Source of the DNA: Antrihabitans cavernicola
GTDB taxonomy: Bacteria; Actinomycetota; Actinomycetes; Mycobacteriales; Mycobacteriaceae
Assembly (NCBI RefSeq): GCF_008297975.1
Contig: NZ_VLNY01000002.1
Coordinates: forward strand, 62,001 to 126,000
Length of the DNA: 64,000 nucleotides
Reading direction: 5' to 3'
Shown here: positions 18,770 to 28,490 of the stretch, piece by piece
Layout: every line of letters starts with the position of its first letter
Position numbering within the stretch: position 1 is the stretch's first letter
The notes under the pieces: generated by a model
Databases searched by the model: none
What the model was told of the DNA's origin: nothing
What the model saw: only the letters and a program-made list of their open reading frames with translations
Position numbers and translations under genes: made by a program

Positions 18770-18846
18770 CGGGGCTGTGGCGCAGTTGGTAGCGCGCTTC
18801 GTTCGCATCGAAGAGGTCAGGGGTTCGATTCCCCTCAGCTCCACCA
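18770..18846 (+). tRNA. tRNA-Ala (anticodon CGC)
   Basis: A complete cloverleaf can be drawn. The acceptor stem GGGGCTG pairs with CAGCTCC, with one G-U pair. The D arm contains GCGCAGTTGGTAGCGC, and the anticodon stem CTTCG/CGAAG encloses the loop TTCGCAT, giving anticodon CGC. The T arm is AGGGGTTCGATTCCCCT, and the gene encodes its own CCA end. It sits at the junction between the conserved galU-moeA block and the accessory segment to its right. Confidence 0.96.
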
Positions 18847-18998
18847 TTACTCGGCTTCTGTCGAAAGCGTAAAGCTGGTCGTCTGACCGGCATTCGGCCA
18901 ATTCAGTTCGCAGGCAAACTGGCTCCGCGCGTTGGTAGGATTGGGCACCTTGCCATCTTTGACAGGGATTGCTTGTCACTACTTTCGAAAGAGCCCCG

Positions 18999-19457
18999 AT
19001 GCAGTTTCAAATCGTCGAACGTGACGAAACTTGGGTTGCAGGGCTACCTGTGCGGAGCCCGAAACGTGCGCTCGGGCGGCTACGGGATCTCGCGCTCGAA
19101 GAAGCATGGTCTGCGGTTTTGAAACAACAAATCGGCGGTCCCCTGGCGTCGATCTATACGGATTTCGCTCCCGACCTCTACACGTACAACACGCAGATCG
19201 TGGGCTACCAATGCTCGTCGCTCGACGAGGTAACTCGCGGCCATATTGTCGCTCGCGTACCGCGGGGTCGGTATGCAGTTTTTTCCGCAGTCGGCGAGTT
19301 CCCGAACGTTATGACCGACCTGTGGACTCAGATCACGTATGCCGAAGAACACGGTCAGATCAAGAGATCTTTCTTGGGTGACTTCGAGTGTTATCCGCAC
19401 GCGTATGGGATCGAGATGTTCCTAGCTATCGAATCCGAACCCTCGAGTTCGACATGA
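18999..19457 (+). CDS. Stand-alone GyrI-like effector-binding protein (first of a pair)
   Basis: This 152-residue protein has the fold pattern of GyrI-like/AraC effector-binding domains. The N-terminal strand MQFQIVERDETWVAGLPVRS is followed by the second-half motif VPRGRYAVFSAVGEFPNVMT, an amphipathic helix, and the end FECYPHAYGIEMFLAIE. There is no DNA-binding domain, so it resembles integron-cassette (Cass2-like) or stand-alone GyrI-type proteins that bind cationic or hydrophobic small molecules. The start is the ATG giving MQFQIVE rather than an upstream TTG. It overlaps the next gene, a second copy of the same fold, by four bases (ATGA). The ligand is unknown. Confidence 0.68.
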   Translation: MQFQIVERDETWVAGLPVRSPKRALGRLRDLALEEAWSAVLKQQIGGPLASIYTDFAPDLYTYNTQIVGYQCSSLDEVTRGHIVARVPRGRYAVFSAVGEFPNVMTDLWTQITYAEEHGQIKRSFLGDFECYPHAYGIEMFLAIESEPSSST

Positions 19458-19891
19458 CGCACGAGATAGTCGTCCGGGAAGCGCAGATTTTCGGTGGGCT
19501 CGTCATACCCCGCGTGCTACCGGGCTTCAAGACGAGCGGCAGCGATCTCGTGGAGTTCCTGAAGGGCCGCTTGCGGGACCGGGATCGGCAGGCCGCCGAA
19601 GATATCTATACCATCTACATCCCCGATCCATCTGGGCAAAACAATGCACTGGTTTGTTTTGCCTACGATTATCATTCTGAAATTCCGATTGGGGACGTAT
19701 TTGCTAGATCCCCTAAAGGAATATATGCGATCTTCCGGCCCATTGGCGAATACTCGGACCCGGTTGAGGACGTTTGGGCACAAGTCCACGGCGCTGCGGA
19801 TTCGGGTGAAATCAATCGCGCATTCGCTGAGGAAATCGAGATTCTGCATCCCGATGGGGGTATCGAGTTACATATCTCGATCTCCTTGTGA
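19454..19891 (+). CDS. Stand-alone GyrI-like effector-binding protein (second of a pair)
   Basis: This 145-residue paralogue of the gene before it starts MTHEIVVREAQIFGGLVIP. It has the second repeat SPKGIYAIFRPIGEYSDPVE, a helix (DVWAQVHGAADSGEINRAF) and the end EEIEILHPDGGIELHISIS. The ATG overlaps the upstream stop, so the two products are probably made together and may pair. No helix-turn-helix is present. It is followed by 353 bases without a gene. Base composition drifts toward AT at the 3' end. Confidence 0.68.
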   Translation: MTHEIVVREAQIFGGLVIPRVLPGFKTSGSDLVEFLKGRLRDRDRQAAEDIYTIYIPDPSGQNNALVCFAYDYHSEIPIGDVFARSPKGIYAIFRPIGEYSDPVEDVWAQVHGAADSGEINRAFAEEIEILHPDGGIELHISISL

Positions 19892-20244
19892 CTGAAACTA
19901 GCTGAGCAGCAACACCGGTCGATAGGGCCTATGCTGCAACTTCCTTCGCACCGCAAATAAGTGGCTTACATGCCGACCGTCGTTCGCCGGGATTCGAGAT
20001 TATTCCCGCTGGTTTTTGAGCAAGCCTTTAGCGGATAATCGGGATTCCTGCAACGCTTGGTCGGGTTCGGTAGCAGTGTTGCTGATCTCGTCCCCGCTTC
20101 GCAGGGATTTTTAGGCTTCCCGTCACAATAGGGCGCCGGGTTCGAAGGTCAGTTAGGTAGATTTCCGACGGACAAGGATCTCTGCGACGGGAGGCCGCGG
20201 TGAATCGACAGTCGATTCACCTGCCTGCCTGAAGGGACCTGGCT
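19892..20244. other. Intergenic region in the accessory segment
   Basis: No supported gene. The right end carries a 23-base perfect palindrome (20199-20221) just before the DUF6875-type gene. AT-rich tracts around 19960-20120 could hold promoters. No tRNA-derived repeat or attachment site copy was found here. Confidence 0.5.
20199..20221. promoter_or_regulatory. Perfect palindrome 24 bases before a start codon
   Basis: Arms GGTGAATCGAC and GTCGATTCACC flank a single central A. It ends 23 bases before the ATG of the DUF6875-type gene, overlapping the likely promoter or leader. The centre TCGACAGTCGA is also the centre of a shorter palindrome ahead of the GGDEF-EAL gene (23121-23133, read on the other strand), which hints at a shared repressor. 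It could instead act as a leader hairpin. Confidence 0.5.
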
Positions 20245-20898
20245 ATGCATTGCACCGCAACCTTGGTAGATCCGGCCGCCACTGAACTCAGAATCGCAAG
20301 TCTATTCACAGCCTCACCTGAGTCAGGGCTTGAAGAGCACACGGCGACGATGAGGCGCTGGGTGTTGGAATTCCTAAGCAAGTCGCACCCTGATCTGGGG
20401 CGAAAGGGTCCAGTCTGCCCCTATACGTCCCCGGCGATCAAACGTGATCTGCTCTGGGTGGCGTTTCTGCGTGGCGGTGACCTCGAACGTGACGACATCA
20501 CCCGAGCGTTGACCGCGATCATCCAAGAATTTCGACGGCGTCCACCAACGGACGGGGACGACTCGCATCTCAAATCAGTCGTCCTCGCTTTCCCGGACTT
20601 CAGTGATGTCACGTTGATCGAATCGATTCAACTGGAGTTCAAGAACTTGTTCATAAAGTACGGCTTGATGGTTGGTCAATTCTATCCGGGCTGCGACGTC
20701 GGGGGTCTCTGGAATCCAGATTTCAAAGCACTCGATGCGCCGTATCCTATGCTCGCCGTGCGGCACATGACTGAAACCGATTATCCCTTTCTGGTCGAGA
20801 ACGAAGAATGGCTTAACGCCTATTTCACTCACTTTGCTCCCCGAATACCAACCAGGGTTCGATCGGACATGATCAAACGCCTTCTTGTTAGTGCTTGA
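20245..20898 (+). CDS. DUF6875-type protein of unknown function
   Basis: This 217-residue soluble protein has the pattern SHPDLGRKGPVCPYTSPAI near residue 50, then LLWVAFLRGGDL and FPDFSDVTLIESIQLEFK. It ends FYPGCDVGGLWNPDFKALD followed by YPMLAVRHMTETDYPFL. I recall this pattern from the family annotated DUF6875 in actinobacteria and proteobacteria, often near biosynthetic or redox genes. No catalytic motif is recognised; the conserved Cys-Pro and Tyr-Pro-Gly-Cys points might be functional. GAAGGGA precedes the ATG. A palindrome directly upstream suggests specific regulation. Confidence 0.65.
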   Translation: MHCTATLVDPAATELRIASLFTASPESGLEEHTATMRRWVLEFLSKSHPDLGRKGPVCPYTSPAIKRDLLWVAFLRGGDLERDDITRALTAIIQEFRRRPPTDGDDSHLKSVVLAFPDFSDVTLIESIQLEFKNLFIKYGLMVGQFYPGCDVGGLWNPDFKALDAPYPMLAVRHMTETDYPFLVENEEWLNAYFTHFAPRIPTRVRSDMIKRLLVSA

Positions 20899-21223
20899 CG
20901 GTGGGTACGCCGGTAGGCAATTGTGTATCGCGCGCCGAGCGGTGCGAGCCGCGACCTGAATTTCACAGACCTAACCAATCGGCCACCTTCTATCTCGTGA
21001 CACTGGCTGGCTCGACGGTTGCGGACCGACCGGTAGGAATGTCACATCTAGGCAATGGTCGGCCGTCCACAACGCTCTGCGCATGCCCGGCACCGAATTC
21101 GTGGCTCTCATGCCGTTTCGCTCTTCATGGTGAATAATGCTACTTAGGTGAGATGACAGTTGTTTCACGTCGACCTACGCAAGTTGATCTATTCGTATCC
21201 GCTATGCGACCGATAGGACCTGG
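20899..21223. other. Intergenic region before the GNAT-ThiF operon
   Basis: About 325 bases without a supported gene; a frame of about 80 codons at its left side has no recognisable product. It probably contains the promoter of the GNAT-ThiF pair. No strong inverted repeat was seen. Confidence 0.45.
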
Positions 21224-21982
21224 ATGAATTACCTAAATCCCGCCGACTTGGCCAGCGGGCCGAGTGGTCGGCCGGTGCATTTGAGTTACACGATCGCGAA
21301 CACTGAATGCCGAGTGGTTGCGACGACTCCAAGTGAAAGCCGCGAGCTCTGGGATCAGTATCTGCAAGGCGCACAACGCGCGTACCGCCGGTTCGGAGTA
21401 GAGGGCGCGCTAGAGTTGGACGCCATTCGAGACGGCCGAACGACGTCTCTATTCTTGGTAGCAATCGACCACCTCGGATCTGGACGCGTTGTTGCTGGCG
21501 CACGGGCACAGGGCCCGTATCGCTCCGCCAGCGAATCTCATGCCGTTGCCGAGTGGCAGGATCACCCGGGCCAAGAAGATGTGCGAACGATGATTGAAGA
21601 GCGAATTCCTCATGGGGTCGTTGAGGTCAAGGGCGCTTGGGTATCAGAAGATGCAGTCGAAAAGTCGGAGCTGTTTCATTTCCTCGCAAGAAGCCCGATC
21701 ATGTCGTTGACAATACTGAATGCGAGGTTCACAGTCGGCACCGCAGGATCCGATTATCATTGGCGAGAATGGGGTTCTTCTGGTGGGGTCATTGCGACGG
21801 AAATTCCACCTGCGCCGTATCCATCGGAAAAATACCAAGCAAAAGTGATATGGTGGGATCGAGAAACTTATCCGTACCTTGCAAGTTCGTTCCATGCAGT
21901 AAGTGCTCTCCATGAAATTGCTGAACTGTTAGGTGGCGTCCGCATTCTTCCTGAGCGCCACGCTTCTGGGCAAGCGTCATGA
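21224..21982 (+). CDS. GNAT-fold protein with LuxI/autoinducer-synthase-like features
   Basis: The 252-residue product shows an acyltransferase-like core. A helix region RELWDQYLQGAQRAYRRFGV is followed by an acidic strand ALELDAI and FLVAIDHLGSGRVVAGARA, then VVEVKGAWVSEDAVEKSELF and a late NARFTVGTAG. It ends with a conserved-looking PPAPYPSEKYQAKVIWWDRE. The order (aromatic/basic helix, acidic strand, hydrophobic strand then G-R) recalls LuxI- and FeeM-type N-acyl synthases, but the exact catalytic residues cannot be assigned by eye. It overlaps the ThiF-like gene by four bases (ATGA), so the two probably act in one pathway. Codon use is more AT-rich than the core genes. Confidence 0.55.
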   Translation: MNYLNPADLASGPSGRPVHLSYTIANTECRVVATTPSESRELWDQYLQGAQRAYRRFGVEGALELDAIRDGRTTSLFLVAIDHLGSGRVVAGARAQGPYRSASESHAVAEWQDHPGQEDVRTMIEERIPHGVVEVKGAWVSEDAVEKSELFHFLARSPIMSLTILNARFTVGTAGSDYHWREWGSSGGVIATEIPPAPYPSEKYQAKVIWWDRETYPYLASSFHAVSALHEIAELLGGVRILPERHASGQAS

Positions 21983-23088
21983 GCGGAATAGAAGTGCCAA
22001 CGTACCGTGCTCGGATCCTGAGCGACAATAACGAAGTTGATATCCAAACGGTCAATTCGTTACGAGCTGATCCAGGCATAGAGTTCATAGACGTGCTCGA
22101 TTCGCAGGTGAACGAGCTTGTAGGTTTGTTACCTTCGCCACCTCCGGATTTGCTCTCGGAACCATACGCCTGGGTGTATTATTCTTGGCGTCGAAGTGTA
22201 GTCCGATCGTTAGGCCCGAAAGCTTATCGCGCAGTGCGCCTCGATAGAAATAGAAATAAAATCACTCGTGAAGAACAGGACCGTCTCGGAAAATTTCGGA
22301 TAGGCGTCGTAGGGCTTAGTGTCGGGCACGCCATTGCATACACTCTTGCGATGGAGGGATTGTGCAGAGAATTGCGTCTTGCGGATTTCGACAATATTGA
22401 GTTGACCAACCTTAATAGAATACCCGCGTCAATGCTCGACCTCGGCTTGAATAAAGCAATCGTTGCTGCACGCAGGATAGCCGAAATTGATCCTTATCTT
22501 TCGGTCGTAGTATATCCATCTGGAGTATCCCGCGAAATGATGCCTGAGTTCGTCGACGGGCTAGACCTCGTGGTTGAGGAATGCGATTCTCTAGATATGA
22601 AAGTCGCTATACGCGACGCTGCGATCGAGCGACGGATTCCGATCCTCATGGAGACGAGCGATCGCGGCCTCTTGGATGTCGAGCGATATGACCTCGAACC
22701 TGACCGAAAACAATTCCACGGGTTGCTCGGTGACGAGTTTGATTTTTCCGCAATCTCAGATCTTTCGCCGCGCGAAAAGATTCCGCACATACACCGCATA
22801 CTTGATGCGAGCGAATTTTCGCCGCGGCTGTTGGCATCATTTGACGAGGTGGGCCGGACGCTATCGACTTGGCCTCAGCTTGCGGGAGATGTTCAGCTCG
22901 GCGGAGCGTCAGTCGCGGCGGCGGTCCGTCGGATCGGTCTCGGGGAGCCTTTGAAATCCGGCAGGACTAGGGTCGATATCGAGCATTCCCTGGACAATGT
23001 CAGTGAACCGGCGGTCTCGGAAGAGGGCAGCAGACTGCGTCGTGGATCCGCAGATTCCGCCATAGGTCCGAACGTCCATACACAATGA
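21979..23088 (+). CDS. ThiF/E1-like adenylyltransferase, resembles N-terminal half of Rv1355c
   Basis: This 369-residue protein has an N-terminal region ending in the motif EPYAWVYYSWRRSVVR and a ThiF-type Rossmann core: RIGVVGLSVGHAIAYTLAME, then LRLADFDNIELTNLNRIP, then LVVEECDSLDMKVAIRDAA. E1-like enzymes adenylylate a carboxyl group on a protein or small substrate. No CxxC zinc pairs or obvious catalytic cysteine are visible. M. tuberculosis Rv1355c has this same core followed by a nitroreductase-like domain, as I recall; that second half is absent here, where the chain ends in an unconserved Ser/Arg-rich tail. The link with the next gene (Rv1354c-like) is also seen in M. tuberculosis. 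The sequence is AT-rich for this genome. Confidence 0.72.
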   Translation: MSGIEVPTYRARILSDNNEVDIQTVNSLRADPGIEFIDVLDSQVNELVGLLPSPPPDLLSEPYAWVYYSWRRSVVRSLGPKAYRAVRLDRNRNKITREEQDRLGKFRIGVVGLSVGHAIAYTLAMEGLCRELRLADFDNIELTNLNRIPASMLDLGLNKAIVAARRIAEIDPYLSVVVYPSGVSREMMPEFVDGLDLVVEECDSLDMKVAIRDAAIERRIPILMETSDRGLLDVERYDLEPDRKQFHGLLGDEFDFSAISDLSPREKIPHIHRILDASEFSPRLLASFDEVGRTLSTWPQLAGDVQLGGASVAAAVRRIGLGEPLKSGRTRVDIEHSLDNVSEPAVSEEGSRLRRGSADSAIGPNVHTQ

Positions 23089-23120
23089 TCGCCCTTATCG
23101 GATAGGCGGGGTAACAGCAG

Positions 23121-23133
23121 GTCGACTGTCGAC
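23121..23133. promoter_or_regulatory. Palindrome GTCGACTGTCGAC ahead of the GGDEF-EAL gene
   Basis: A perfect 13-base palindrome with one central base lies 38 bases before the GTG start of the cyclic-di-GMP enzyme. Its centre, read on the minus strand, is TCGACAGTCGA, identical to the core of the palindrome ahead of the DUF6875-type gene. Confidence 0.42.
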
Positions 23134-23171
23134 GATCATCATGCGAACGCGCTCAGTGAGAGGGTCGGGAT

Positions 23172-25073
23172 GTGAACAGTACGGCTACCAGGAGAAGCCT
23201 CGAGCTACTCGTTTCCGAGATCGCTACATCGCTGATGGGTGTCGATGCGGCGACGATGGTTCCAACGACTGAAGTCATATTGGCGAGACTGCGTGCGTTT
23301 TTCGGTGTCGACCATACGTGCCTTCGGTATAACGATCATGAAATTCGTGCGTCGATCATGATTGCTGAATGCCCAAGCCGTGACGTGATTCCCGACCCGG
23401 ATCCTCTGGGAGTCGTCTACTTCGAGGACGCAGACGAGGTTTTCGCGCAGGCGGAGCATATGACAGACCTGATTTATGGTCGCCCAGGTTCGGGAACGGA
23501 GGGGTATCAGGAGCGAGTTCGTGAGGGTGCAGCCGCAATGGCTGCCGATGTCGTTGGTGATGGCGTTCCCGAGGCGTCGTTCCTTGCGGCGCCCCTCGTC
23601 TCAGCCGGCGTCCCCTCAGGATTCATCTCGCTCACTAAGTTTGGTGATCGTGAATTCGATGCCGACGAGATGAATGCCATGAGGGCAATCGCAGCCCTTT
23701 TTGCGCAGCTGAAGGCCCGCATTGCAGCTGAGGAGCAATTGCGGCACATAGCGTCACATGACGATCTGACTGGATTGTCGAACCGCCGGGCCCTTCTCGA
23801 ACACATGGAGGAGCGATTGGCGCCGGGAAGGCCTGGTCCGGTGGCGACGCTATTCATCGATCTGGACAGACTGAAGGCGCTCAACGACTTTCTCGGCCAT
23901 TCGGCCGGAGACCAGTTTATCTCAGCAATTGCGCGGCGGCTCCGTGATCAAACCGACCCGCGTGACATGATCGCCCGCCTCGGTGGCGATGAGTTCGTAA
24001 TCGTTCCTGCGCTTTCACTAGGCGCCGCTGCGGCAGAGAGTGAGGCGCAGCGCATCAGGAAACTGATTGGTGAGCGAGTCGAACTGGGCGGAGAGAAGGT
24101 CAGCCGCAGCGTGAGTATCGGTGTCGCGGTTGGGAATCCAGGCAGCACCTCGGTTTCGGATGTATTGCGCCAGGCCGACCAAGCTGTGATGGCAGCAAAG
24201 GCGAGCGGGGGAAATGGCATAGCTATTTTCACTGAGGAGATGAGGGCGCAGTACGAGCTCCGAGATGATATCGAGCTGAACTTGCGGCACGCTATCGAGA
24301 GCGAAGCGCTCTTTCTGCATTATCAACCAGAAGTTGATCTTCGAACTGGTCGTATCGAGGCAGTAGAGGCTCTCGTGCGATGGCAACATCCGACGCGGGG
24401 TCTCCTGTATCCAGGAGCGTTTATCGAGGTTGCGGAGGCGACGAATCTAGCCGGAGAAATTGGCCGCTGGGTAATTAGGAGTGCATGCCAGCAATTGGCG
24501 GACTGGAGAAAAGCCGGATTGGCCTCCGACATTGTGCTCAGGATAAATGTATCGCCGGTCCAGCTTGTAAGTCTCGATTTCGTCGCATCCGTGGACCAAG
24601 TGCTCGCGGAGTTTGGGATAGATGGCAAGTCTGTATGTTTTGAAATTACTGAGCACGTTGTAGTCCAAGACTTAGTGCGGACGCGAATTACGCTCCGAGG
24701 GCTGAAAGACATTGGTGTACAAGTCGCGATCGACGATTTCGGGACCGGCTACAGTTCGCTTGCACATCTGAAGGCGCTGACCGTCGACGCATTAAAGATC
24801 GACCTCGGATTCGTTCGTCGGCTGGGTGAGGACGCCGATGATCTTGCGATTGTAAAATCGATAGTTGGTCTTGCAAATTCGTTTGGTCTTGGTCTCGTGG
24901 CGGAGGGCGTTGAGACGGTCATTGCGGCCGAAACGCTTATAAGTGTCGGATGCTATCGCGCGCAGGGTTTCCTCTTGTCACTTCCAGTCGCGCCTTCGGA
25001 GATTGCCAAGCTATTGACGACGGGTTATATTTCTGTCGACTTTTCAGTAAACGACGAAGTCAACACGAATTGA
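23172..25073 (+). CDS. GAF-GGDEF-EAL cyclic-di-GMP enzyme (Rv1354c/DgcA-like)
   Basis: The 633-residue protein has an N-terminal GAF-type sensor (about 20-185), a GGDEF domain with an intact RLGGDEFVIV active site (about 190-355) and an EAL domain (about 370-620). The EAL domain has VEALVRWQHP, RINVSPVQL, EITEHVVVQD, DDFGTGYSSLAHLK and AEGVET, all in catalytically competent form. It could therefore both make and break cyclic-di-GMP. The inhibitory I-site normally has RxxD five residues before GGDEF; here it is DPRD, so product inhibition is probably lost. Domain order and wording closely resemble M. tuberculosis Rv1354c, which also neighbours a ThiF gene (Rv1355c). The start is GTG. Confidence 0.92.
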   Translation: MNSTATRRSLELLVSEIATSLMGVDAATMVPTTEVILARLRAFFGVDHTCLRYNDHEIRASIMIAECPSRDVIPDPDPLGVVYFEDADEVFAQAEHMTDLIYGRPGSGTEGYQERVREGAAAMAADVVGDGVPEASFLAAPLVSAGVPSGFISLTKFGDREFDADEMNAMRAIAALFAQLKARIAAEEQLRHIASHDDLTGLSNRRALLEHMEERLAPGRPGPVATLFIDLDRLKALNDFLGHSAGDQFISAIARRLRDQTDPRDMIARLGGDEFVIVPALSLGAAAAESEAQRIRKLIGERVELGGEKVSRSVSIGVAVGNPGSTSVSDVLRQADQAVMAAKASGGNGIAIFTEEMRAQYELRDDIELNLRHAIESEALFLHYQPEVDLRTGRIEAVEALVRWQHPTRGLLYPGAFIEVAEATNLAGEIGRWVIRSACQQLADWRKAGLASDIVLRINVSPVQLVSLDFVASVDQVLAEFGIDGKSVCFEITEHVVVQDLVRTRITLRGLKDIGVQVAIDDFGTGYSSLAHLKALTVDALKIDLGFVRRLGEDADDLAIVKSIVGLANSFGLGLVAEGVETVIAAETLISVGCYRAQGFLLSLPVAPSEIAKLLTTGYISVDFSVNDEVNTN

Positions 25074-25160
25074 TTGATTTCAGATTGATTGCGTAGAGCC
25101 GGTTGGAGTATTTTCTCCTTGTAGTCCGGTGGGCGATCGACTAGGACCAGGGGGCTCGAC

Positions 25161-26147
25161 GTGGACGGTTGGATTTTGGTGGAGACTCTGGCACCCGACG
25201 GCCCATATACGGTCATCGCAGATGGCAATCGACCCAGATCATGGGCGAGCCCACATAGAGTTCGGTTTGGATATGGCCCGACCGTGCTCAGTCAAATTGC
25301 AGTTGTGCGCGAATGTCGTGAATCTGCAGAGATCAAAGATGTTCTCATAACGGCGCGGCACGGGACGGTGCTCCGGATACTGGGAATCCCGATTCTCGGT
25401 GAGTACGGCGCAGTTCACGGTGTGTATCTCTGGTGTGGCACGAATGATGTTGCGCCGAGTGAGCGCAGGTTTACTGCCGCGTGGGAGTGGGATTCGAAGA
25501 CAAAACTCGCACACCACGGTCCTGGTATCGAGGGTGACATCCTTGGTGTACCGAAATCGGCTCACCGTGATATACGCGCCCATACCGATTTCTTCCGACG
25601 AGTCGTGCGATTCGACGGTCGGATGTCCTACTACGACTTTGTCGCGAAGTTGGACCCGCGTGAATCTTGGGATGGTGAAGTCACCATCCTTCGCGAAGAT
25701 GGATCGTTGCGGCAGTTGCATATCTTTGCCCGCGCGTACATCGAGGCGGGTGCTCGGGCCGTCCGTGGACTGGTTAATGATGTTACGGACATTCATCAAC
25801 CGGATACCTCGTTGGAAATGCCAGCGCTCAGAGCGGTCGCCGCCGCCGATGGCGATCCAGCAGGTCTGATCGCGCTGGACTACTCGACTGTCTATGAGTG
25901 GTTATCCGCGCCGAATGGTGAGTTGCGTCGATGGGTGGAGGAAGTGCCGGATATCCATCCCGACGACTGGGACGACTGGTCCTGTGCTTGCCGCGCCGTA
26001 CTCGAGGGTGACGATGTGGCGGCGGTGAATGTTCGCCTCCGCTTTGGCCAAGCGGAGTGGATTCGCGTGGTGGCTCACATCAACAACCTTAATTCGAGCG
26101 AGCGTTCGCTCGGTCTCATTCGGATCACCTCATCAGTAGACCTGTGA
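25161..26147 (+). CDS. PAS/GAF-like DUF5593-type protein, paralogue 1 of 3
   Basis: This 328-residue soluble protein starts (GTG) MDGWILVETLAPDGPYTVIA. It has two visible parts. An N-terminal GAF-like region includes VLRILGIPILGEYGAVHGVYLW. A PAS-like region carries AAWEWDSKTKLAHHGPG, FFRRVVRFDGRMSYYDFV and VRGLVNDVTDIHQPD. A C-terminal segment begins MPALRAVAAADGDPAGLIAL and includes PDIHPDDWDDW. I associate this layout with a mycolata family annotated DUF5593, of unknown function. No catalytic, membrane or DNA-binding motif is seen. It follows the cyclic-di-GMP enzyme by 87 bases, and two paralogues follow in line. Confidence 0.6.
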   Translation: MDGWILVETLAPDGPYTVIADGNRPRSWASPHRVRFGYGPTVLSQIAVVRECRESAEIKDVLITARHGTVLRILGIPILGEYGAVHGVYLWCGTNDVAPSERRFTAAWEWDSKTKLAHHGPGIEGDILGVPKSAHRDIRAHTDFFRRVVRFDGRMSYYDFVAKLDPRESWDGEVTILREDGSLRQLHIFARAYIEAGARAVRGLVNDVTDIHQPDTSLEMPALRAVAAADGDPAGLIALDYSTVYEWLSAPNGELRRWVEEVPDIHPDDWDDWSCACRAVLEGDDVAAVNVRLRFGQAEWIRVVAHINNLNSSERSLGLIRITSSVDL

Positions 26148-26300
26148 TCAGGAAGTGCGAGTATTAGTGCTCATATCAACGGAGATCGACCTCGAAGAAA
26201 ACGGCGCGGTGGGTGAGTCGGCTGTTAGCGAGTTGCGTGATTGCGACTCGCTGACTTACGTGGGTGCCTGGAGTGAACACGACGTCGATTGTCTGACGAA

Positions 26301-27305
26301 ATGACGTCGTCAGACTGGATTGTCGTAGAGACTTTGGTGCCCGCAGGCCCGCATACCGTCATCGCCGATGGTGCGGAGCCGAGGAGCTGGGCCAGTCTCA
26401 CTCGCATCCGGGCCGAGCACGGGCCGGATGCCGCTGGCAGCCTCGTCGGCGTCGTGACAAAATGCGTGGAAACTGCTGGTTCGCAACAAGAGTCGATCCT
26501 GCGCCGGCGCGGCGGAGGCCGATTGACTGTGCTCGCAGTACCGATTTTAGGGGCCTTCGGACATCCTCATGGAGCGCACGTCTGGGTTGGCGCTGACGGC
26601 GATCAACCGCCGCCTCGACGGCGGGTGGCCGCAGTTGAATGGGACGCGAAGTCTCAGTCGGCGCATCACGGTGCCGACCACGACGAATTGATACTTGGAA
26701 CGACGCGCGGGCGACGCGGCGTCACGCGGCCACCGAATGACTTCTTCCGCCGGATTGTTCGATTCGATGACCGTATCGACTATCTCACGCTGGCTGCAAA
26801 CATCGAGCAAGGAGGACGGTTCGAAGGCAATTTGACACTTCACGACGATTGCGGCGGCTTGAGAGTGCTGAGAATGGCCGCCCGGGCCTACTCCGAGGGA
26901 GACGCCCGATCATTGCGAATCCTCGTGCATGACATTTCGGATGTGCAGCCCCCTGAACCTGCGATGGACACGGCGGCGCTTCGGGCGGTTGCCGGCGCAT
27001 GCGGTGACGGAGCGGGCTTGATGACGCTGGACGGCGCGCTGATATTCGAGTGGTTGTCACCGCCCCCCGGCCGGTTGGCAGCGTGGGAAGACGAGCCCCC
27101 GTTCATACGGCAAGACGATCAACGGAAACTCGAGGCGATGTGTGCGCGTCTGCGTCTCCGTGTGAGTGCTCCCGACGAGACGTTGGTTGTTCACGTTCGA
27201 TTCGGTACGGGCGAGTGGATTCGGGCAGAAATCGCTGTGACGAGAATTGTGAATGATCCTGCCCCGCTGGGGCTTGCAATTGTAAGACTCGATGAGGAGG
27301 ACTAG
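26301..27305 (+). CDS. PAS/GAF-like DUF5593-type protein, paralogue 2 of 3
   Basis: This 334-residue protein starts at the ATG giving MTSSDWIVVETLVPAGPHTV; a TTG 12 bases earlier is less likely. It keeps the same landmarks as its neighbours: RSWASLTRIRAEHGPDA, LAVPILGAFGHPHGAHVWVG, AAVEWDAKSQSAHHGAD, FFRRIVRFDDRIDYLTL, RILVHDISDVQPPEP and a C-terminal MTLDGALIFEWLSPP. The duplicates are clearly diverged at the protein level, so the duplication is old. The function is unknown; a sensor role is guessed from PAS/GAF-like features and the neighbouring cyclic-di-GMP enzyme. Confidence 0.6.
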   Translation: MTSSDWIVVETLVPAGPHTVIADGAEPRSWASLTRIRAEHGPDAAGSLVGVVTKCVETAGSQQESILRRRGGGRLTVLAVPILGAFGHPHGAHVWVGADGDQPPPRRRVAAVEWDAKSQSAHHGADHDELILGTTRGRRGVTRPPNDFFRRIVRFDDRIDYLTLAANIEQGGRFEGNLTLHDDCGGLRVLRMAARAYSEGDARSLRILVHDISDVQPPEPAMDTAALRAVAGACGDGAGLMTLDGALIFEWLSPPPGRLAAWEDEPPFIRQDDQRKLEAMCARLRLRVSAPDETLVVHVRFGTGEWIRAEIAVTRIVNDPAPLGLAIVRLDEED

Positions 27306-27491
27306 CAGGGCTCTTGTCGAGGCAACCACATTCGATCGGTGCGCGAACTCCGGGCTAGTAAGCTCTGCTGATTGCGTACGGAGGGCCGGAGTGGCGATTG
27401 AGCCGTTTCTGATTACTGCACTCGCGCGACAAAGATGCTCTGGCATTGGCGCAGATCAGTTTGGCGAGTGCGTTGGAGATGACGCGCGCGC

Positions 27492-28490
27492 ATGACCTCA
27501 CCACCCTGGATCGTCGTGGAAACCCTTTCTCCACTCGGCCCCCATACCGTCATCGCCGATGGTGATCGGCCGAAGAGCTGGTCAAGTTTGGCCCGAGCAC
27601 GATCCGGCTATGGCGCGGATGCCACGAAACGCCTCATCGACATCGTCGGCCGGTGCGTCGAGCGTGCTGTCGAACTACAGGACGTGCTCACCGCGCGGCC
27701 GGGGAAAGAGCAACTTCGCACAGTCGGTGTCCCAGTGCTCAGCGCGTCCGGAGCGGTCCATGCTGTTCACGTTTGGGTCGGCCCCGTCGGCGCGACCCCG
27801 CCTGCGCGGCGGGGTGTTTTCGCATGGGACTGGGATGCCGACGCCGAACTCGCATATCAAGGCCCAGGGCTCGAGGCGGCGATTCACGGATTGGACCCGG
27901 CCGATCAGAAGGTGGAGCGAACCGCGAGCGAGAACTTCAGAAGCATCGTTCGATTCGACGATCGCGTGGGCTATCTGGATCTCTGCGCCAATGTTCACGG
28001 TGGTGGCGCATGGCAGGGCGAGATCACGTTTCTCGGCGAGGGAAATGGCTTGCACCAGCTGCAGATGATCGCAAAAGCGTCCACACCTGGCCGCTCGAAG
28101 GTGATTCATGGACTGTTTCACGAGATCAGTGACATTCGCCCGCCCGGGCCGATGGTCGAAATGTCCGCCCTTCGGGCGGTAGCCCGGGCCTCGGGCGACG
28201 GTGTCGCGTTGGTCGCGCTCGAAGCGGCCCTGATGTACGACTGGCTGGCCCCGCCGGCGCCGCCACTCGATCTGTGGGTCCGTGAGCGGCCGCAGGTTCA
28301 CCACGACGATCGGACCGTTCTACGAGACGCGTGCCAGCGCATCCTCGCGGATGGGATCAGTCAAGAGATCTCGTTCCGAGTGCGCTTCGACGCGGATTGG
28401 CTACGAGCGGATGCTGTGCTGACCAGAGTCTCCGACGACATTGCACCCCATGGCCTCCTCTTGGTCAGGCCGAGCGCGACGGACCACTAG
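27492..28490 (+). CDS. PAS/GAF-like DUF5593-type protein, paralogue 3 of 3
   Basis: This 332-residue protein starts MTSPPWIVVETLSPLGPHTV and shares the family landmarks: PKSWSSLARARSGYGADA, VGVPVLSASGAVHAVHVWVG, FAWDWDADAELAYQGPG, FRSIVRFDDRVGYLDLCA, HGLFHEISDIRPPGP and ALMYDWLAPPAPPLDLW. It is closest in base composition to the core genome of the three. It is the last gene before the mannosyltransferase mgtA. Three tandem copies next to one GGDEF-EAL protein suggest sensors with different ligands, but this is inference. Confidence 0.6.
   Translation: MTSPPWIVVETLSPLGPHTVIADGDRPKSWSSLARARSGYGADATKRLIDIVGRCVERAVELQDVLTARPGKEQLRTVGVPVLSASGAVHAVHVWVGPVGATPPARRGVFAWDWDADAELAYQGPGLEAAIHGLDPADQKVERTASENFRSIVRFDDRVGYLDLCANVHGGGAWQGEITFLGEGNGLHQLQMIAKASTPGRSKVIHGLFHEISDIRPPGPMVEMSALRAVARASGDGVALVALEAALMYDWLAPPAPPLDLWVRERPQVHHDDRTVLRDACQRILADGISQEISFRVRFDADWLRADAVLTRVSDDIAPHGLLLVRPSATDH

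What the first reader, a model, noticed from the sequence alone, without database searches (positions are those of the whole stretch)
21224..25073. LuxI-like GNAT + truncated ThiF + GAF-GGDEF-EAL: a possible new signal-making system
A GNAT-fold protein with N-acyl-synthase-like features overlaps by four bases a ThiF/E1-like enzyme, and a complete cyclic-di-GMP enzyme follows. M. tuberculosis keeps a ThiF gene (Rv1355c) beside the same GGDEF-EAL type (Rv1354c), so the link is conserved across genera. An attractive model is that GNAT and ThiF make a small acylated or adenylylated signal that the GAF domain of the cyclic-di-GMP enzyme reads. I know of no description of such a pathway.
Basis: partly seen in the sequence, partly recalled or inferred. 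Interest (0 to 1): 0.82.

Follow-up and report, generated by a model that had tools for sequence, protein, structure and literature searches.

The report
Desaturase-less acyl-oxazolone operon beside cyclic-di-GMP
These genes look like a variant of a recently described bacterial pathway that turns tryptophan into a small ring-shaped lipid, missing its usual last enzyme and sitting beside a probable tryptophan-oxidising heme protein and a cyclic-di-GMP enzyme, which makes the unknown role of these lipids testable.

Summary
In detail: GNAT (21224-21982) overlaps ThiF (21979-23088) by four bases and an intact GAF-GGDEF-EAL gene (23172-25073) follows. The pair is homologous to trzA-trzS (Rv1356c-Rv1355c), shown in December 2025 to make N-acyl tryptazolones; that paper also noted the c-di-GMP neighbours in M. 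tuberculosis.

New here: (1) the window's TrzS is the cyclase half only, and no TrzS-type oxidase (FDO) was found in the genome. The FDO-less form is in 4 of 4 genomes of this genus (it holds Antrihabitans) and, separately, in 13 genomes of genus g6, two of which also lack any TrzS-type FDO. (2) A c-di-GMP gene lies within 6 kb in 52 of 59 testable named loci; partners include soluble GAF-GGDEF-EAL and membrane-type GGDEF. (3) A DUF6875 gene, of a family reported as tryptophan-oxidising heme proteins, precedes the GNAT; the five close Antrihabitans copies form one clade, each near a trz-type gene.

Best reading: a trz variant making a desaturase-independent, possibly pre-oxidised N-acyl-tryptophan oxazolone, functionally tied to c-di-GMP. 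That the GAF domain reads the product is untested.

The parts
18969..19457 (+). Cass2/GyrI-like small-molecule-binding protein (first of two overlapping ORFs); possible ligand-binding partner
   Evidence: PF14526 Cass2 E 1.4e-22.
19388..19891 (+). second Cass2/GyrI-like protein (weaker match; start codon uncertain)
   Evidence: PF14526 E 3.2e-4, 21.4 bits, below Pfam's cut-off of 27
20245..20898 (+). DUF6875 protein, predicted heme protein that oxidises tryptophan
   Evidence: PF21780 E 1.2e-59; keeps all 34 columns that are at least 90% conserved among 26 rows; clade of five Antrihabitans copies 100/100. Heme/Trp chemistry is from a passage of PMC13307353, not tested here
21224..21982 (+). 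TrzA-like GNAT, predicted amino-acid (probably tryptophan) N-acyltransferase
   Evidence: 47% identity to the R. jostii trz-locus GNAT; FeeM/LuxI fold; groups 97/93 with four other Antrihabitans GNATs (L066, L068, L069, L070); the G015 trz GNAT (L067) falls outside
21979..23088 (+). TrzS cyclase (ThiF) domain without the flavin-dependent oxidase half
   Evidence: NF005901 positions 10-352 of 722; adenylation Asp203 in EECDSLD conserved in 16 of 16 rows
23172..25073 (+). GAF-GGDEF-EAL c-di-GMP synthase/phosphodiesterase, same architecture as Rv1354c
   Evidence: PF01590, PF00990, PF00563; motifs intact; 58-73% identity to the copies in the three other Antrihabitans trz loci
25161..26147 (+). 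Rv3651-like protein 1 (adjacent; membership of the module uncertain)
   Evidence: PF18007 E 1.6e-15
26289..27305 (+). Rv3651-like protein 2 (adjacent; uncertain)
   Evidence: PF18007 E 3.6e-16
27492..28490 (+). Rv3651-like protein 3 (adjacent; uncertain)
   Evidence: PF18007 E 1.9e-17

Best explanation
This is a variant of the trzAS N-acyl-oxazolone pathway. The GNAT (TrzA-like) N-acylates an aromatic amino acid, most likely tryptophan or a tryptophan first oxidised by the neighbouring DUF6875 heme protein. The ThiF enzyme (the cyclase half of TrzS) adenylates the carboxylate with ATP and closes the oxazolone ring. The usual third step, FDO desaturation, is missing in this genome, so the end product should be a saturated N-acyl oxazolone (or one oxidised instead by DUF6875) rather than a tryptazolone. 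The GAF-GGDEF-EAL enzyme is a standing partner of the pathway: the product or its synthesis is functionally tied to c-di-GMP. Shown here: homology, predicted fold, architecture, no TrzS-type FDO found, conservation of the neighbourhood. Inferred from characterised relatives: the N-acylation and cyclisation activities. Inferred only: DUF6875's role in this pathway, the product, and the direction of the c-di-GMP link.
For: Homology to characterised TrzA/TrzS (chemistry from PMC12856293). FeeM/LuxI fold of the GNAT. Adenylation Asp conserved. Best PDB sequence match of the ThiF is TcdA, which by recalled knowledge cyclises a carbamoyl-threonine. No TrzS-type FDO in the genome at E<=1e-3 with a 332-position profile that, in the same search, finds the fused FDO in 4 of 4 genomes of g6 and g29 searched (the G123 domain is itself a row of the profile). 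In TrzS, cyclisation precedes desaturation, and the saturated ring accumulates when O2 is limited, so a cyclase alone can give a product. c-di-GMP gene within 6 kb in 52 of 59 named loci and in 15 of 15 close FDO-less loci. Two of the 12 genomes searched have one GGDEF match each, and it is the trz one. The five close Antrihabitans DUF6875 genes lie next to or within 1.8 kb of a trz-type gene, against 0 of 20 with a GNAT and 1 of 20 with a GGDEF among the other-genus DUF6875 loci fetched.
Against: No metabolite or activity was measured. In the paper the saturated cyclised species was not detected in vivo with TrzAS, nor with TyzA+TyzB alone, so a saturated ring may be too labile to be an end product. 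A second paper (PMC12479983, passages) reports that ThiF and nitroreductase genes are absent together in a strain that makes only saturated N-acyl tyrosines, i.e. there the two travel together. DUF6875 chemistry is second-hand. Two FDO-free genomes of genus g6 (G056, G115) had no DUF6875 match, so DUF6875 is not a required substitute. In 5 of 11 fetched g6 FDO-less loci no GNAT was detected in the locus.
Confidence: 0.62

Rival explanations
1. The operon makes an oxazolone or N-acyl-Trp that is not a signal (stress lipid, antimicrobial, envelope component). The c-di-GMP enzyme controls its production, or both answer the same cue; nothing reads the product.
For: The paper links oxazolones to stress physiology and reports N-acyl tyrosines with antimicrobial activity. 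Adjacency does not give direction. c-di-GMP partners come with two unrelated sensor parts, GAF or membrane, which is easier to explain if the enzyme senses something else.
Against: The ThiF keeps a GGDEF neighbour even where no GNAT was detected in the locus (5 of 11 fetched g6 FDO-less loci). The pairing is found across genera and in two genomes with a single GGDEF match.
Confidence: 0.33
2. The window copy is decaying: losing the FDO half made the pathway non-functional, and GNAT and ThiF remain as relics.
For: FDO half absent; low GC in the locus (0.53-0.57 against 0.65-0.67 in flanking genes); a weak GNAT-like trace in one relative's gap (L197, E 2.7e-4 for one of 58 GNAT queries).
Against: The window ORFs are intact and invariant ThiF residues are kept. 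FDO-less ThiF is in 4 of 4 genomes of the genus, and one clade with the g6 form is rejected (AU p 0.0016, quick tree). No FDO remnant was found at 22901-23300.
Confidence: 0.08
3. DUF6875 is a heme-based sensor or regulator of c-di-GMP signalling (gas or redox), not a biosynthetic enzyme of this pathway.
For: A natural fusion of a GGDEF domain with DUF6875 in one 393-aa ORF (L207, PF00990 1.1e-22 and PF21780 4.9e-61). DUF6875 stands near a GAF-GGDEF-EAL gene without GNAT or ThiF at the syntenic site of two Antrihabitans species (L196, L197).
Against: Two other Antrihabitans copies sit directly beside a GNAT with no GGDEF detected within 9 kb (L069, L070). DUF6875 proteins are reported to oxidise tryptophan, the substrate of TrzA.
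Confidence: 0.25
4. E1-like protein conjugation or a CBASS-like defence module.
For: PADLOC E1-E2 models match the ThiF weakly (best 36 bits).
Against: 530 bits to the Rv1355c family. No ubiquitin-like, E2 or JAB protein was named among the ten window proteins scanned with Pfam.
Confidence: 0.02

Closest known systems
trzAS tryptazolone pathway (Rv1356c-Rv1355c; homologs in R. jostii RHA1 and M. smegmatis; PMC12856293)
   Same: Homologous GNAT and ThiF domain, same gene order, c-di-GMP neighbour of the same type (GAF-GGDEF-EAL)
   Different: The window's TrzS lacks the FDO half and no TrzS-type FDO was found in the genome; a DUF6875 gene precedes the GNAT; substrate and product unknown
tyzACB tyrazolone pathway of M. 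tuberculosis (PMC10404671)
   Same: N-acyltransferase plus stand-alone ThiF cyclase
   Different: Tyz has a separate FDO gene (TyzC) and uses Tyr/Phe; the window ThiF is of the Rv1355c family
OxzAB of Pseudoalteromonas rubra
   Same: Acyltransferase plus ThiF
   Different: OxzB is a ThiF-FDO fusion and makes tyrazolones/phenazolones (as described in PMC12856293 and PMC10404671)
FeeM and LuxI-type acyl synthases
   Different: 6-9% identity in those two alignments; no PDB sequence hit below E 0.4
DUF6875 / 'cytochrome P422' tryptophan-oxidising heme proteins (e.g. ZigI; PMC13307353 passages)
   Same: Pfam family PF21780
   Different: ZigI belongs to a quinolone diterpenoid cluster; that paper, the only one the library search for DUF6875 found, names no TrzA-type acyltransferase in the passages read
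Rv1354c / MSDGC-1
   Same: GAF-GGDEF-EAL architecture; Rv1354c makes and degrades c-di-GMP in vitro (PMC2994820, passages)
   Different: Activity of the window copy not tested

Membership tests
trzAS N-acyl-tryptazolone pathway | TrzA-type N-acyltransferase gene next to the ThiF gene | tested here: met
   47% to the R. jostii trz-locus GNAT; GNAT and ThiF genes overlap by 4 bases
trzAS N-acyl-tryptazolone pathway | ThiF cyclase domain of Rv1355c type with adenylation Asp | tested here: met
   NF005901 530 bits over positions 10-352; Asp203 conserved in 16 of 16; the same Asp falls at 217 for one candidate start in L167 and L177, of 16 loci looked at, in keeping with the paper's D217 of M. smegmatis TrzS
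trzAS N-acyl-tryptazolone pathway | FDO desaturase domain fused or adjacent | tested here: not met
   Absent from the gene; no FDO hit in the window; 0 matches at E<=1e-3 in the whole genome with the FDO profile
trzAS N-acyl-tryptazolone pathway | Acylates tryptophan with short/medium acyl-CoA | not testable with these tools
   Needs enzyme assay
LuxI/FeeM acyl-synthase fold | Predicted fold matches | tested here: met
LuxI acyl-homoserine-lactone synthase | Makes AHL from SAM | not testable with these tools
   No match to any Pfam or NCBIfam family at E<=1; the nearest homologs found are TrzA-type
DUF6875 heme Trp oxidases | PF21780 domain with conserved columns | tested here: met
   201.8 bits, cut-off 24.5; 34 of 34 conserved columns kept
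DUF6875 heme Trp oxidases | Binds heme and oxidises tryptophan | not testable with these tools
   Reported for the family in PMC13307353, citing a preprint that is not held; single-sequence fold failed, pLDDT 42
Bifunctional c-di-GMP enzymes (Rv1354c type) | GAF, GGDEF and EAL domains with intact motifs | tested here: met

The most novel reading that the evidence does not exclude
A heme-oxidised, desaturase-independent N-acyl-tryptophan oxazolone works as a lactone-like signal made by a LuxI-fold enzyme and read inside the cell by the GAF domain (or by the Cass2 proteins, or in other species by a membrane GGDEF), setting c-di-GMP levels. It would be an acyl-amino-acid counterpart of AHL signalling in mycolic-acid bacteria.
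Probability: 0.2. Interest if true: 0.87.

Novelty: new variant of a known kind. Interest (0 to 1): 0.6.

Why it matters
The authors of the trzAS paper call the physiological role of oxazolones a major unresolved question. The survey here shows that the c-di-GMP gene is not peculiar to M. tuberculosis: one lies within 6 kb in 52 of 59 testable named loci from several genera and, in two genomes, it is the only GGDEF match found. The natural FDO-less variants suggest that acylation and cyclisation can be kept without desaturation. The DUF6875 gene predicts an oxidised product. Both points suggest simple tests in harmless laboratory actinobacteria.

Tried and rejected
Considered and rejected: an E1/E2 conjugation or defence system (weak PADLOC hits only); a decayed locus (intact ORFs, repeated origin); AHL synthesis (closest sequence relatives found are TrzA-type). 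DUF6875 as an obligatory FDO substitute was weakened by my own test: G056 and G115 gave no FDO match at E<=1e-6 and no DUF6875 match. The idea that the window GNAT is specifically the DUF6875-linked paralog was not resolved: identity favours it (51-52% against 39-42%), but the tree does not decide (AU p 0.45 and 0.456 for the two alternatives).

Led nowhere: single-protein scan of genome contigs with the GNAT; PDB sequence searches for the GNAT and DUF6875; single-sequence fold of DUF6875 (pLDDT 42; not used for a fold search); papers on Rv3651; the interactome paper PMC2671525 (only a reference matched). A first FDO reference was read from the wrong strand; FDO labels of that call are void and were redone. 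The PF00881 nitroreductase model detects this FDO poorly, so the A2 profile was used instead.

Dropped before counts: of 80 named loci (the best 80 of 525 by similarity to the ThiF alignment), 21 with under 6 kb on one side of the ThiF. Of the 18 close FDO-less matches in 17 genomes (4 genomes of g1, 13 of g6), 15 were put in the locus set (the window, 3 others of g1 and 11 of g6); G115, G170 and the second G200 copy were not fetched. Of 48 DUF6875 sites, 26 were looked at with neighbours. Trees used selected rows (61, 64, 27 and 26). The locus set holds a few genomes twice, once unnamed and once named (e.g. L066/L159, L068/L118).
Full report
Observation. GNAT and ThiF overlap by ATGA at 21979-21982. 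Pfam and NCBIfam show ThiF PF00899 and the first half (positions 10-352 of 722) of NF005901 'Rv1355c family' at 530 bits, and GAF, GGDEF and EAL in the third protein; the GNAT has no family hit at E<=1. GGDEF, EAL and DDFGTGY motifs are intact.

What the pair is. A paper of December 2025 (PMC12856293; I read the abstract, all of Results, the Discussion and passages) shows that Rv1356c (TrzA) N-acylates L-tryptophan. [quoted passage not shown] The order is obligate. In M. smegmatis TrzS, D217A abolishes cyclisation, while R540A impairs the FDO and the cyclised intermediate accumulates. The Discussion notes the neighbouring c-di-GMP genes rv1354c and rv1357c and the likeness to acyl homoserine lactones. 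The window GNAT is 47% identical over 194 residues to the R. jostii trz-locus GNAT, and the window ThiF 56% over 338 residues to the N-half of R. jostii TrzS (strain NBRC 16295, not RHA1 itself). The adenylation Asp (D203, EECDSLD) is conserved in 16 of 16 aligned rows. In M. austroafricanum and M. septicum (2 of 16 loci looked at) this Asp falls at 217 for one candidate start, in keeping with the paper's number. The nearest PDB sequences of the ThiF are TcdA proteins (E 5e-7), enzymes that by recalled knowledge close a ring on a carbamoyl-threonine carboxylate.

The missing oxidase. TrzS ends where its FDO half would begin. No FDO trace was found at 22901-23300. A 332-position profile of the TrzS FDO domain (A2) finds no match at E<=1e-3 in the whole own genome; the same search finds the fused FDO at 400-535 bits in 4 of 4 genomes of two other genera (one of them supplied a row of the profile). 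In the three other genomes of this genus it gives only 22-45-bit partial matches. In a survey of 201 genomes of the family, 90 have an NF005901 match at E<=1e-30. Eighteen close matches (480 bits or more) in 17 genomes stop before the FDO: 4 of 4 genomes of the window's genus and 13 of genus g6. Of those 13, 11 also hold a full-length copy (in G200 split over two contigs) and two, G056 and G115, give no FDO match at E<=1e-6. One clade of the two FDO-less groups is rejected (AU p 0.0016), while one clade of the four Antrihabitans rows is not rejected (p 0.164; quick tree). So the FDO was lost, or never joined, at least twice.

c-di-GMP. In 80 named loci, the best by similarity to the ThiF, 59 have 6 kb or more on both sides. 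Of these, 52 have a GGDEF or EAL gene within 6 kb, 44 a TrzA-like GNAT and 57 the FDO. Inside the same loci, c-di-GMP ORFs number 55 in 531 kb within 4.5 kb, against 12 in 411 kb beyond; some of the latter are the same partner moved away by inserts (L134, L141, L187). Among the G-handle loci and the window, 14 of 16 with FDO and 17 of 23 without have a c-di-GMP gene within 6 kb. All 15 close FDO-less loci do (GGDEF 113-1390 bases from the ThiF); the six without it are among the eight more distant ThiF genes. Twelve genomes searched carry 1-31 GGDEF matches each, so by my arithmetic chance would give at most about 6%. G109 and G047 have one GGDEF match each at E<=1e-10, and it lies next to trzS. 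The loci are related by descent, so they are not independent trials. Partners come in two kinds: soluble GAF-GGDEF-EAL, or GGDEF with 4-7 hydrophobic segments and no GAF (10 proteins scanned, eight of them partners at trz loci; crude hydropathy of those eight). GAF sensing can therefore not be the general rule.

DUF6875. Upstream of the GNAT lies a DUF6875 gene (PF21780, E 1.2e-59). A 2026 paper (PMC13307353, passages only) says that DUF6875 proteins were recently found to be heme proteins able to oxidise L-tryptophan, citing a preprint that is not held. The window protein keeps all 34 conserved columns of 26 rows. DUF6875 is found in 39 of 201 genomes of the family and in 3 of 396 in a sample of the phylum, all three of this family. 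The five close Antrihabitans copies form one clade (100/100), and each sits next to or within 1.8 kb of a trz-type gene: the window; G042 and G015 copies directly next to a TrzA-like GNAT with no ThiF (L069, L070); G061 and G042 copies near a GAF-GGDEF-EAL gene (L196, L197). A sixth, divergent copy of the genus (L198, 31%) has no such neighbour. Of 20 DUF6875 loci fetched from other genera, none has the GNAT and one (L207) is a GGDEF-DUF6875 fusion in one ORF.

Synteny. In the window the order is moeA, rimJ-like, tRNA-Ala, two Cass2, DUF6875, GNAT, ThiF, GAF-GGDEF-EAL, three Rv3651-like, GT4. The same chromosomal site in G015 holds Cass2, GNAT, ThiF, GGDEF-EAL; in G061 Cass2, DUF6875, a gap, GGDEF-EAL; in G042 DUF6875, a gap, GGDEF-EAL. 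In G163 (genus g22), with a GT4 neighbour too, the order is two Cass2, GNAT, ThiF-FDO, GGDEF-EAL. The G042 gap holds a weak GNAT-like trace (E 2.7e-4 for one of 58 queries, uncorrected).

Mechanism and its status. Shown: architecture, predicted fold, conserved residues, no TrzS-type FDO found, conserved neighbours. Expected from relatives: N-acylation and ATP-dependent cyclisation. Inferred: substrate (Trp or oxidised Trp), a saturated or DUF6875-oxidised oxazolone as product, and a functional tie to c-di-GMP whose direction is open. Against it: the saturated ring was not seen in vivo in the paper; in another family of N-acyl tyrosine clusters ThiF and nitroreductase are missing together (PMC12479983, passages); two FDO-free genomes had no DUF6875 match; five g6 loci lack a detectable GNAT.

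Novelty. The pathway type is known; the possible signalling role and the c-di-GMP adjacency are already printed for M. tuberculosis. The paper's similarity network colours ThiF nodes by neighbouring FDO, acyltransferase or both, so acyltransferase-only ThiF genes may already be counted there without comment. Library searches for Rv1355c with Rv1354c (1 paper), 'tryptazolone' (1 paper), tyrazolone/acyl-oxazolone/oxazolone synth/di-GMP (3 papers with two or more terms) and DUF6875 (1 paper) gave, in what I read of those papers, no account of an FDO-less trz operon, of DUF6875 beside trzA, or of a survey of the c-di-GMP link. Supplements were not read, and the library lacks most subscription papers and preprints, so this is not proof of absence.

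Noticed in passing
L207:5352-6533 (G031): A DUF6875 domain fused behind a GGDEF domain (RGDEF motif) in one 393-aa ORF, a separate link between this heme family and c-di-GMP.
   Followed up: partly
window 18969-19891 and loci L087, L089, L094, L098, L152, L157, L161, L169, L067: A pair of Cass2/GyrI-like small-molecule-binding proteins sits just upstream of trzA in these trz loci (Rhodococcus and related genera); they could be the ligand readers.
   Followed up: partly
window 25161-28490: Three tandem Rv3651-like proteins (40-43% identical to each other) stand where the G042 and G061 copies of this site have an MFS transporter gene.
   Followed up: no
window 18969-26147: GC falls to 0.53-0.57 directly after tRNA-Ala (18771-18846), against 0.65-0.67 in the flanking genes, which looks like a replaced or imported stretch.
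   Followed up: partly
L197:8295-9563 (G042): The gap between DUF6875 and GGDEF-EAL holds a weak GNAT-like trace (tblastn E 2.7e-4 over 50 residues, one of 58 queries), perhaps a lost trzA.
   Followed up: no
L076, L077, L078, L080, L081: FDO-less ThiF plus GGDEF with no TrzA-like GNAT detected in the locus; in L077 and L078 the adjacent gene is an alpha/beta hydrolase.
   Followed up: partly
L090, L091: trz loci in which about 5 kb of other genes lies between GNAT/GGDEF-EAL and TrzS.
   Followed up: no
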